In this document: piece after piece, positions 42,041 to 51,560 of the stretch
How positions within the stretch are numbered: the stretch's first letter is position 1
How the letters are laid out: the number at the start of each line of letters is the position of its first letter
Assembly: GCA_903842345.1 (NCBI GenBank)
Contig: CAIMLR010000002.1
Location: 248,001 to 312,000, forward strand
Direction: 5' to 3'
Origin: an uncultured Myxococcales bacterium
GTDB lineage: Bacteria > Myxococcota_A > UBA9042
DNA length: 64,000 nucleotides
Program-made: the position numbers and the translations under genes
Notes under the pieces: generated by a model
What the model saw: only the letters and a program-made list of their open reading frames with translations
Database searches by the model: none
What the model was told of the DNA's origin: nothing

Positions 42041-42784
42041 TTAGACCAGCGCGGCGAGGGCGATTCCCGCTGCGACGCTGACGTTCAGCGACTCGACCGC
42101 GTCGGTCCCGGCAATCCGCAGGCGCAGCGAGCACGCCGCTTCCACCGCGGGGTCGAGGCCCGTCTCTTCCGATCCCAGCACCAACAGCACCGGCTTGCCC
42201 CGGTACTGCCCAAGCTCCGCCAGGGACTTCTCACCGCGCACCGCCAGCGCCAACGCGTGGCCGCCCGCCTGCACGTACGCGCGCACCACCGCCAGCGCGT
42301 TGTGGCACGCCGCGACCGGCAGATACTCCAGCCCGCCTTCCGCCGTCCGGCACGCTGCAGCACTGCGCACGGTCTCCGCGCCTTCCGCCGTCAGCCACAG
42401 CGCCTGCACGCCGAGGAACGCCGCCGTCCGGGCAATCGCGCCGACGTTGTGTGGGTTGCCGACGCCATCCAGGAGCAGCGTCACGCCCGGCTGCCGCGCC
42501 GCATGCTCCACGGCCTCGCGCGCCAGCACCGGCACCTCCGGCGCATCCAGCACGGCGACGAGCCCCTGATGCGCGCGCGAGCCTGCCACGCGGTCGAGTT
42601 CCGCGGCTGGCAGTTCGCGAAAGATCGCCCGCCGCTTGGCCAGCTCCTGCAGGATCGGTTGCAGCGAGCGGCTGTGCTCCGCGCTGAAGAACAGCCGCCG
42701 CACGCGATCGGGCCGCTTCTGGAGCGCTGCCTGCACGGCGCGCAGGCCGCACACAGTCTGTTCACGTGTCCCGGGCGTCGCCAT
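42041..42784 (-). CDS. TrmH/SpoU family RNA 2'-O-methyltransferase
   Basis: 247 residues. The ATG at 42784 overlaps the upstream gene's TGA by one base, which fixes the start. It has the substrate-binding N-domain (VCGLRAVQAALQKRPDRVRR) and knot motifs LLDGVGNPHNVGAIARTA, VLVLGSEETGLDP and SLNVSVAAGIALAALV. Motif 1 has Asn in the NxGAIxR position, as expected. This is the second SpoU enzyme in the window (the other is at 8722-9849), and the two are only distantly alike. The RNA target is unknown. Confidence 0.9.
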   Translation of the reverse strand: MATPGTREQTVCGLRAVQAALQKRPDRVRRLFFSAEHSRSLQPILQELAKRRAIFRELPAAELDRVAGSRAHQGLVAVLDAPEVPVLAREAVEHAARQPGVTLLLDGVGNPHNVGAIARTAAFLGVQALWLTAEGAETVRSAAACRTAEGGLEYLPVAACHNALAVVRAYVQAGGHALALAVRGEKSLAELGQYRGKPVLLVLGSEETGLDPAVEAACSLRLRIAGTDAVESLNVSVAAGIALAALV

Positions 42785-43254
42785 CACAGGTCCCGGTCGT
42801 TGGGCGGTCCCGGGAGGACCCCGCTCTCGTCGCGCCACGCACCCATCTCGGTCAGGCGCAGCCGGGCAAACTCGCGGGTCAGCCGCGCCACGCGCGCGCG
42901 GGCATTGCGCAGCCGTTCGTCGTCCGTCGCGTTGTCCTGCGGCGGCAGCGGCAGCGGTGAACCGAGCATCGCTTCGTGGTACCAGTGGTTGGTCGCTTCA
43001 ATGTGCATCAGCACGCCGGCCAGATCCTCATCCAGAGCGTCGTCGCGGGCATCCACCTGGACAAGTCCATCCAGCAGTCGGAGCTCGGCGGCGTCCGCGT
43101 CCTGCGCCGGGTCCACGCGGGCGAACAGCTCCACCCAGCGCGTCGGCGGCCGACGGTCCAGCTCAAAACGCACGACGATCAGCCGGGCGTACCGCGGGTG
43201 CCGACCAACGACGCGGACGGTAGAAACGAGGATGGGCTGCCAGGGAGTGATCAT
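42784..43254 (-). CDS. Small protein of unknown function
   Basis: 156 residues, not recognised. The N-terminal half is beta-rich (PILVSTVRVVGRHPRYARLI); the middle is acidic and ends in a helix with HIEATNHWYHEAM, a His/Trp-rich patch. The C-terminal third is Arg-rich and helical. No signal peptide or membrane segment. It is coupled (TGATG) to the SpoU methyltransferase gene downstream, which suggests a shared process. The ATG at 43254 has no strong ribosome site; a GTG at 43299 is the alternative. Confidence 0.6.
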   Translation of the reverse strand: MITPWQPILVSTVRVVGRHPRYARLIVVRFELDRRPPTRWVELFARVDPAQDADAAELRLLDGLVQVDARDDALDEDLAGVLMHIEATNHWYHEAMLGSPLPLPPQDNATDDERLRNARARVARLTREFARLRLTEMGAWRDESGVLPGPPNDRDL

Positions 43255-51000: not shown

Positions 51001-51560
51001 GCCGCGCCCGCCTTCGTCCCCGGCGCCATGTGCTTGGCGAGGCCCAGGTCCACCACTTTCACGTAGTCGTCCACCGAGCCGATCTTGGTCAGCAGGATGT
51101 TGTCCGGCTTCAGATCGCGGTGGATGATGCCGGCTTTGTGGGCCTCAATCAGCGCCTCGCACACCCGCTGGCCAATGCGCACCATCCGGTTGACCGGCAG
51201 CCACCGCTCGCGGTCCAGCAAATCGCCCAGCGACTCGCCGTCGATGTACTCCATCGCGATGTACGTCCGGCCCTGTTCCGTCGCGCCAATGGCGTAGACC
51301 GTCGCCATGAACGGCGAGCGGATGCGCGCGAGGATCTTGGCTTCCTGGACAAACCGCTCGTCCGCCTGCAGCTGCGTCGCGAGGTCTGAACGCAGGACCT
51401 TGAGCGCCACCGGTCGGCCGAGGCGAATGTCCTCCGCTTCATACACCGCGCCCATGCCGCCGCGGCCAATCAGGCGCACGATGCGGTAGGAATTGTCGAC
51501 CAGCGAAGAAGCGGGCAGCTCGTCGTGATCTTTGCGCGGGGACGCGAACGGCGTGGCCAT
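48075..51560 (-). CDS. Ser/Thr protein kinase fused to ATPase-like and TPR regions
   Basis: 1161 residues. The ATG at 51560 follows GAGG. The Hanks-type kinase domain (about 23-290) has GRGGMGAVYEAED, the ATP Lys in VALKVL, HRDLKPDN, DLG in place of DFG (VVDLGLAK) and APE-like YMSPEQAAG, so it should be active. A Pro/Arg/Gln-rich linker is followed by an AAA/STAND-like region (~340-620) with a Walker B-like VLVLLLDRAEH; I see no good Walker A. The C-terminal ~500 residues are Ala-rich TPR helices. No TM segment is visible, so it is cytosolic. It heads the cyclase operon. Confidence 0.9.
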   Translation of the reverse strand: MATPFASPRKDHDELPASSLVDNSYRIVRLIGRGGMGAVYEAEDIRLGRPVALKVLRSDLATQLQADERFVQEAKILARIRSPFMATVYAIGATEQGRTYIAMEYIDGESLGDLLDRERWLPVNRMVRIGQRVCEALIEAHKAGIIHRDLKPDNILLTKIGSVDDYVKVVDLGLAKHMAPGTKAGAAARLTQARLVVGTPAYMSPEQAAGHDVGPSSDLYSLGVICYEMLCGFLPVDGETPQDFLRAHQLQPPVPLAKRRTDLTFPPQLDAFFNRVLAKSVTDRPVDARAFAEELEKLEASLNLPRQSRTVVVADTQPRMETMKRDGADQQLRPDERPRMGNATAQQRPQRPPESPRERRPSGPTLDMLDDRLDRAKDRVRLEMVGLVSRSRAALYDAMDGFATHLGNRADAPVVVRMRVAPPDGRLPIACFFDEIRSRAGLFEDDSASMARRKLLAWVQGLMPDRPDRASQVAHLVGLYLRVEFPDSPHLSHARAVPEVARQAACGALVDALRAIAGRNVLVLLLDRAEHLTETETAFLRRLIRQLGATPMMVVAAWVAKTDDVPAALTGTLAQGAVAAIPSRELPPLDVDALEPETRRALAAAIQLGAPLWPDMLEAATGASVGVHLDRLVRAGALRQAPTSRLSNQSEYLLAETPDSVSLPGLKPVSLRHALTWMQNHAEIRAEPWAARLATLEAAAGEALQAARHSREAADLMRALGALPEAIVTYEASRQQCRALHQSPDAGPAERTAAAYTLATTALGLARALGERGECQAASDRARESIEILRAMPGLGEDDWYAHGVPLLDVWAEAEAHCGRAQSTLAPLEAQVTALTRSATKLAPMQLAHTQLALGRSLKVSAVNADKVVLQKAVGVWSEALESVAALHEPVMAAELAMELADTWRTLGDGDKSVIHARRALAAARDARNLILEVEALRALALALRDIGELDDAEAQLGEALNALGRVDRQRLAAEVLVLLAAVLQARGAMDEADAALAKACRAFAALPDLAGLSDALRQRGDIQMAHGIYTRAKAFAEEAARQAVLAAHDNLRLKALLLTARAAAAAGEPSTAHTAMEEAFQLVPGDVPTQERAECMVVLADLIEAGVLTSDRQPQSLLQEAEALYREISVITEAQRLARRLRAMNGYASGANSGAAVVKP

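What the first reader, a model, noticed from the sequence alone, without database searches (positions are those of the whole stretch)
42041..51560. Kinase, CHASE2 cyclase and AgmX-tail lipoprotein in one tight minus-strand run
A soluble Ser/Thr kinase with ATPase/TPR regions lies 33 bp before a CHASE2-adenylate cyclase, whose end overlaps a FecR/AgmX-tail lipoprotein. The overlaps imply co-translation. Together they could pass an envelope signal through cAMP and phosphorylation, with the TonB-like tail contacting an envelope machine. I know of no described system with this composition.
Basis: partly seen in the sequence, partly recalled or inferred. Interest (0 to 1): 0.62.

Follow-up and report, generated by a model that had tools for sequence, protein, structure and literature searches.

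The report
CHASE2 cyclase–lipoprotein pair beside unrelated kinase
Two overlapping genes encode a membrane cAMP-making sensor and a lipoprotein that is probably its envelope partner, a new variant of a known kind of pairing, while the protein-kinase gene beside them is a separate gene that joined this neighbourhood in one bacterial genus.

Summary
The three genes are real and tightly spaced: kinase 51560-48075, 33 bp, CHASE2 adenylate cyclase 48041-45726, then a lipoprotein whose ATG lies inside the cyclase gene (20-nt overlap). Gene-neighbourhood comparison splits them.

Kinase: an orthologue occurs in 21 of 22 genomes of the family, but outside this genus it usually follows ruvC-ruvA-ruvB. 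One same-genus genome keeps it and carries only a scar where cyclase and lipoprotein were. Its 'ATPase' region has no P-loop.

Cyclase and lipoprotein: they travel together in three genera, with the 20-nt overlap kept in eight genomes. CHASE2 genes across the phylum are enriched for FecR neighbours (12/55 against at most 1/55) but not for kinases (2/55 against 2/55).

The lipoprotein is not FecR by Pfam. Its N-domain folds like a LapA/MpAFP retention module, with weak FecR profile similarity. An invariant linker motif (RHSxxEA) follows, then a TolA/TonB-C-like AgmX tail.

Best reading: a two-gene envelope-to-cAMP sensor, a new variant of the published CHASE2-FecR pairing. The three-gene relay is not supported beyond one genus. 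No biochemical step was tested.

The parts
48075..51560 (-). Soluble Ser/Thr protein kinase (1161 aa): PknB-like kinase domain 25-285, degenerate STAND-like region without P-loop (about 396-640), C-terminal TPR superhelix (about 670-1150). Judged a neighbour, not a member of the pair.
45726..48041 (-). CHASE2 class III adenylate cyclase (771 aa): TM 24-42, periplasmic CHASE2 about 49-395, three TM segments 395-469, catalytic domain about 510-690, conserved C-terminal tail WDGVYDQHSK
44552..45745 (-). Lipoprotein (397 aa from ATG 45745; alternative ATG 45754): lipobox Cys22, retention-module/FecR-like beta-domain 41-117, invariant linker motif 134-154 (TASAGRHSEQEAAQTGEAATR), disordered linker, AgmX/TonB-C-like domain 288-397
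45726..45745 (-). 20-nt overlap of cyclase end and lipoprotein start; kept in 8 genomes
48042..48074 (-). 33-bp kinase-cyclase spacer (24-33 bp in the other three genomes with the arrangement)
43327..44508 (-). deoB phosphopentomutase, 43 bp after the lipoprotein gene; housekeeping neighbour, not part of the system
42784..43254 (-). 156-aa protein of unknown family; neighbour
42041..42784 (-). SpoU/RlmB-type 2'-O-ribose methyltransferase; neighbour
51629..53500 (-). Secreted fibrinogen-like (GGGWT) protein upstream of the kinase; found before the kinase in most genomes of this genus; neighbour

Best explanation
The unit is two genes, not three. A membrane CHASE2 class III adenylate cyclase is translationally coupled to its probable envelope partner, a lipoprotein. 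Proposed working: the lipoprotein's TonB/TolA-C-like tail and its retention-module/FecR-like domain sample the state of an envelope structure. The lipoprotein, through its beta-domain or its invariant linker motif, then acts on the periplasmic CHASE2 domain. CHASE2 passes the change through the TM segments to the cyclase domain, cAMP changes, and cNMP-binding regulators respond. The kinase is a family-wide gene, normally next to ruvCAB, that came to lie upstream in one genus; any shared transcript is local. Shown here: gene structure, domains, catalytic residues, cross-genus conservation of the pair and its overlap, separability of the kinase, and presence of cNMP-binding proteins in the genome. 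Inferred: physical contact of lipoprotein and CHASE2, direction of signalling, cAMP as product, and the signal itself.
For: Pair: cyclase orthologues (57-84% identity) followed by the lipoprotein in genera g1, g2 and g9; 20-nt overlap in 8 of 9 of these genomes, a 9-nt gap in the ninth, with codon choice at the overlap keeping the ATG. CHASE2-FecR partnership: FecR in 12/55 immediate same-strand neighbours of CHASE2 genes against at most 1/55 distant genes (Fisher p 0.002), with no kinase enrichment, 2/55 against 2/55. Paralogous CHASE2 cyclases of the same family have Pfam-FecR neighbours (E 1e-16), and in several other families the unit is TPR/beta-barrel, FecR, CHASE2 cyclase. Lipoprotein folds: retention module 5ix9 (TM 0.82 by target length) and TolA/TonB/FusB C-domains. 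Kinase separable. Cyclase catalytic residues conserved. 16 cNMP-binding domains in the genome. Literature: BiofilmReg FecR plus CHASE2-HK operon (PMC5192318); CHASE2 cyclases CyaD1/D2/K act downstream of the outer-membrane barrel NsrA in Sinorhizobium (PMC13001267).
Against: No direct evidence that the lipoprotein touches CHASE2. In genus g5 (G008) the cyclase is present without the lipoprotein beside it; a lipoprotein fragment lies on another contig. The lipoprotein family also occurs without a neighbouring cyclase (G006:C93, G006:C161, G005:C113, G003:C484, and G097 in a distant family), so it can work otherwise. Pfam does not call its domain FecR. The kinase-cyclase adjacency is kept in all four same-genus genomes that have the pair, so a genus-level functional link is not excluded.
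Confidence: 0.62

Rival explanations
1. A true three-gene relay: envelope signal to lipoprotein, to cyclase, to cAMP, with the upstream kinase phosphorylating or being tuned by the same pathway.
For: Order and 24-33-bp spacing kept in all four same-genus genomes that have the pair; all genes co-directional, with no terminator-like site reported between them.
Against: In other genera the kinase lies after ruvCAB and was never found beside the pair; about ten genomes have the kinase without the pair; a same-genus genome kept an intact kinase after the pair was deleted. No enrichment of kinases near CHASE2 genes. The same run also carries deoB and rlmB, so co-direction means little.
Confidence: 0.14
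2. The lipoprotein is an accessory of an envelope machine (AgmX/GltG-like or TonB/Tol-like) and shares an operon with the cyclase only for regulation; it does not act on CHASE2.
For: AgmX/PglI tail hits in 12 of 16 members; lipoprotein paralogues occur without a cyclase and keep the linker motif; in G008 the cyclase has no lipoprotein beside it.
Against: Cross-genus conservation of a coupled overlap with the cyclase and the general FecR-CHASE2 neighbour enrichment argue for a direct partnership.
Confidence: 0.2
3. LapA-like regulated proteolysis: the linker motif (ASAG/AAAG before RHSE) is a LapG-type cleavage site and clipping frees the tail.
For: Retention-module fold, NCBIfam retention_LapA hits in 9 of 16 members, and some members carry AAAG or SAAG where LapG would cut [T/A/P]AAG (PMC13090378).
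Against: No LapG-family protease (PF06035) in any of 22 genomes of the family; this protein itself has ASAG; the strictest conservation lies after the AG, in RHSxxEA.
Confidence: 0.04

Closest known systems
BiofilmReg operon (Burkholderia): LysM-FecR protein plus CHASE2 histidine kinase (PMC5192318)
   Same: An exported FecR-type protein encoded in one operon with, and directly beside, a CHASE2 receptor.
   Different: Output is a histidine kinase with a response regulator, not cAMP; the FecR protein has LysM, not a lipobox, linker motif or AgmX tail; the FecR gene comes first.
TPR/beta-barrel - FecR - CHASE2 cyclase units of other Myxococcota families (seen here)
   Same: CHASE2 class III cyclase with a similar W-D/Q-G...K tail, and an adjacent exported FecR protein.
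   Different: FecR lies upstream and often with an outer-membrane barrel; here the partner is downstream, a lipoprotein, retention-module-like, with its own TonB-like tail and no barrel gene.
Sinorhizobium CHASE2 cyclases CyaD1/CyaD2/CyaK with NsrA and Clr (PMC13001267, PMC5498481)
   Same: CHASE2 cyclases making cAMP in response to a signal relayed by an envelope protein.
   Different: The envelope partner is a beta-barrel and the signal comes from a plant host.
AgmX/GltJ and PglI/GltG of the Myxococcus gliding machine (PMC3169522)
   Same: C-terminal TonB/TolA-like domain (NF033768).
   Different: Those are predicted integral membrane proteins of the glt machine (PglI with a cytosolic FHA domain); this one is a lipoprotein with a retention-module-like domain and no glt genes beside it.
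LapA/MpAFP retention module of RTX adhesins (5ix9)
   Same: N-terminal beta-domain fold.
   Different: Not a giant adhesin, and no LapG protease in the family.

Membership tests
CHASE2 class III adenylate cyclase | N-terminal TM, periplasmic CHASE2, three TM segments, cytoplasmic cyclase | tested here: met
CHASE2 class III adenylate cyclase | catalytic metal Asp pair, Lys/Thr substrate residues, Asn/Arg pair | tested here: met
   motifs LFSDVRGF, DKYIGDAVM, YTVMGDAVNLASRLE; closest solved relatives are adenylate cyclases
CHASE2 class III adenylate cyclase | cAMP production | not testable with these tools
   needs an enzyme assay
FecR family (PF04773) | match to the Pfam FecR model | tested here: not met
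   no hit in 15 members at E<=10
FecR family (PF04773) | profile similarity to FecR proteins next to CHASE2 genes | tested here: inconclusive
   hhalign probability 72.7, P 3e-5 over 55 columns
LapA-type retention module | fold of the MpAFP anchoring domain | tested here: met
   Foldseek 5ix9 E 4e-4, TM 0.82 by target length
LapA-type retention module | NCBIfam NF033682 at cut-off; LapG protease in genome | tested here: not met
   best 27.6 bits, cut-off 50, no hit for this protein itself; PF06035 absent from 22 genomes
AgmX/PglI C-terminal domain (NF033768) | score over the curated cut-off of 40 bits | tested here: not met
   26.4 bits for this protein; relatives in G001 and G006 score 55 and 47
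AgmX/PglI C-terminal domain (NF033768) | TonB/TolA C-domain fold | tested here: met
   TolA, FusB, TonB C-domains in Foldseek; the first of the two usual Cys is lost in this protein
Three-gene kinase-cyclase-lipoprotein system | the three genes together beyond one genus | tested here: not met
CHASE2-FecR partnership | exported FecR-type gene directly adjacent to and co-directional with a CHASE2 gene | tested here: inconclusive
   adjacency and coupling met; FecR identity only in fold/profile terms
STAND ATPase kinase | P-loop (Walker A) in the central region | tested here: not met
   absent from that region in all 18 orthologues; a STAND-TPR protein is among the Foldseek hits

The most novel reading that the evidence does not exclude
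The lipoprotein is a member of an undescribed envelope-sensor family (retention-module fold, invariant RHSxxEA linker motif, TonB/TolA-like tail). In this bacterial family it plugs a TonB-like contact with an envelope machine directly into a CHASE2 cyclase, so that one lipoprotein replaces the FecR protein and beta-barrel of other CHASE2 systems and reports envelope state through cAMP.
Probability: 0.33. Interest if true: 0.6.

Novelty: new variant of a known kind. Interest (0 to 1): 0.36.

Why it matters
What CHASE2 domains sense is largely unknown. A conserved, translationally coupled lipoprotein partner with a short invariant motif gives a concrete, testable candidate for how an envelope signal reaches a CHASE2 cyclase. 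The kinase result is a caution: tight spacing on one strand does not make a system, and comparison within the family plus one deletion scar was enough to separate the parts.

Tried and rejected
Three-gene relay: rejected beyond the genus. FecR by sequence: rejected for Pfam, kept only as weak profile similarity. LapG cleavage of the linker: a close consensus match in some members, but no LapG protease in 22 genomes. Active ATPase in the kinase: no P-loop. Promoter/terminator scan: one promoter-like site, terminator count as in shuffles, uninformative. Kinase orthologues outside the family: only partial matches. Lipoprotein beside the cyclase in G008: looked for in all frames, not there. Literature for a kinase plus CHASE2 cyclase plus lipoprotein system: none found in the searches run; CHASE2 fused to Ser/Thr kinases in cyanobacteria is a different arrangement (PMC2176072). 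Several coordinate slips of mine returned errors or a wrong frame and were redone.

Full report
What is there. On the minus strand, 51560-44552, three genes follow each other: a soluble Ser/Thr kinase (51560-48075), a CHASE2 cyclase (48041-45726) and a lipoprotein (ATG 45745, stop 44552). The kinase-cyclase spacer is 33 bp. The lipoprotein ATG lies 20 nt inside the cyclase gene; a second in-frame ATG lies 29 nt inside. The finding's interval also includes deoB, a 156-aa protein of unknown family and an RlmB/SpoU methyltransferase; further genes on the same strand upstream are a fibrinogen-like secreted protein and TerC. The three genes are therefore part of a longer co-directional run with housekeeping genes.

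Domains. The kinase has a complete PknB-like catalytic domain (G-loop, VALK, HRD, DLG). Residues 396-1161 were modelled confidently (mean pLDDT 86): a small alpha/beta region followed by a long TPR superhelix, closest to LGN/Pins TPR domains, with a STAND-TPR protein also among the matches. The alpha/beta region has no P-loop in any of 18 orthologues, so 'ATPase' is at best a degenerate STAND domain. The cyclase has an N-terminal TM, CHASE2, three TMs and a class III catalytic domain with all substrate and metal residues. The lipoprotein has a lipobox (ILAC, Cys22) and two confidently folded domains, 41-117 and 288-397. The first matches the retention/anchoring domain of an RTX adhesin (5ix9) and the second TolA, FusB and TonB C-terminal domains. 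Sequence models agree in part: retention_LapA in 9 of 16 and myxo_SS_tail in 12 of 16 family members, below cut-off or absent for this protein itself. Pfam FecR is not matched by any of 15 members; profile-profile comparison with FecR proteins that neighbour CHASE2 genes gives a weak positive (P 3e-5, probability 73).

A conserved linker motif. Directly after the first domain lies TASAGRHSEQEAAQTGEAATR (residues 134-154). In 16 relatives (paralogues included) its T, A, R, H, S, E, A, E, A and R positions are invariant, although the model gives most of this stretch pLDDT below 50. A distant relative in another family (G097) keeps AAAGRHAEREAA. Invariance without predicted structure suggests a binding motif. 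It also resembles a LapG site in some members, but no LapG protease was found in 22 genomes of the family, so I do not favour cleavage.

Does the trio hold together? The cyclase has an orthologue in other genera of the family (57-84% identity), and the lipoprotein follows it in genera g1, g2 and g9. In g5 (G008) the gene after the cyclase is on the other strand and a lipoprotein fragment lies on another contig; in g3 (G002) the contig ends inside the cyclase gene. The 20-nt overlap is kept in eight genomes; in a ninth (G001) the start is 9 nt after the stop. The overlap ATG needs a TAT Tyr codon in the cyclase tail: all eight overlapping genes use TAT there, although TAT is 28% of their Tyr codons, while G001 and G008 use TAC. 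Treated as independent this would have p near 4e-5; the genomes are related, so it is supportive rather than a test.

The kinase behaves differently. Its non-catalytic part has an orthologue in 21 of 22 genomes of the family (in G008 it is split over two contigs, in G014 only a fragment was found, and fragmented G002 has only a weak match) and is full-length nowhere else in 141 genomes of the phylum. In most other genera it follows ruvC-ruvA-ruvB, often with a DUF167 gene between, and faces folE/MoxR genes, with no CHASE2 cyclase or lipoprotein of this kind beside it (gene names there are my reading of the sequences; in G017 an unrelated cyclase lies next to it). Only in genus g1 does it sit next to the cyclase. 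In same-genus G004 the order is TerC, fibrinogen-like, kinase, deoB, rlmB: the kinase is intact (84% identity) and the stretch after it still encodes the last 55 or so residues of the lipoprotein. G004 has no orthologous cyclase or full lipoprotein elsewhere. So the pair was lost and the kinase kept.

Is CHASE2 next to FecR or next to kinases in general? For 56 CHASE2 genes across the phylum, excluding this clade, FecR occurs in 12 of 55 immediate co-directional neighbours against at most 1 of 55 genes three or more places away (Fisher p 0.002); Pkinase occurs in 2 of 55 against 2 of 55. The sampled genomes are not phylogenetically independent. In several families the unit is a TPR/outer-membrane-barrel protein, a FecR protein and a CHASE2 cyclase. 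FecR with CHASE2 histidine kinase is published as the BiofilmReg operon (PMC5192318). In Sinorhizobium CHASE2 cyclases respond through the outer-membrane barrel NsrA (PMC13001267).

Mechanism. I propose a two-gene sensor: the TonB/TolA-like tail and retention-module domain of the lipoprotein read the state of an envelope structure and the lipoprotein acts on CHASE2, changing cAMP. Sixteen cNMP-binding domains in the genome could receive the signal. Contact, direction and signal are inferred. The lipoprotein family also exists without a cyclase, so it may have been recruited to the cyclase from another envelope role, which is the main rival.

Verdict. Observation partly confirmed, interpretation partly supported: the cyclase-lipoprotein pair is a real conserved module and a new variant of a known kind; the kinase is most likely a neighbour acquired in one genus. 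The nearest named records are metagenome-assembled 'uncultured Myxococcales' genomes; I did not establish the organism's name.

Noticed in passing
L091 (G004:C204) 8378-8580: Deletion scar: an intact kinase gene is followed directly by the last 55 or so codons of the lipoprotein and then deoB; the cyclase and the rest of the lipoprotein are gone.
   Followed up: yes
L142-L157: The kinase orthologue follows ruvC-ruvA-ruvB (with a DUF167-like gene in several) in most other genera of the family and faces folE/MoxR genes, a stable setting with no known reason.
   Followed up: partly
window 45284-45346 (lipoprotein residues 134-154); L235 6492-7514: Invariant RHSxxEA motif in a linker predicted to be disordered, also kept (RHAEREA) in a stand-alone relative in a distant family (G097).
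   Followed up: partly
L081, L082, L083, L084; L072 13413-15756: Lipoprotein paralogues without a cyclase beside them in three same-genus genomes, and a tandem duplicate after the cyclase in G001.
   Followed up: partly
window 44630-44790 (lipoprotein residues about 320-372): The cyclase-linked lipoproteins of this genus lost the first Cys of the Cys pair seen in the tail of unlinked paralogues and of the G001 copies.
   Followed up: no
L208 (G035:C8) 1420-6410: Independent case of a Ser/Thr kinase gene directly downstream of a CHASE2 gene in another family.
   Followed up: no
L205-L210: Another recurring neighbour group, around short CHASE2 proteins: a small exported protein (CsgG/LpoB-like in 4-5 of 55 neighbours) and a large TPR protein downstream.
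   Followed up: no
window 51629-53500: Secreted protein with a fibrinogen-like GGGWT motif, upstream of the kinase in most genomes of this genus.
   Followed up: no
window 42784-43254: 156-aa protein with no Pfam or NCBIfam match, conserved between deoB and rlmB in three same-genus genomes; not seen there in G004.
   Followed up: no
own genome (G000): Close to 50 Ser/Thr kinase-domain matches and 16 cNMP-binding domains; this is the only full-length CHASE2 cyclase found in the assembly.
   Followed up: no
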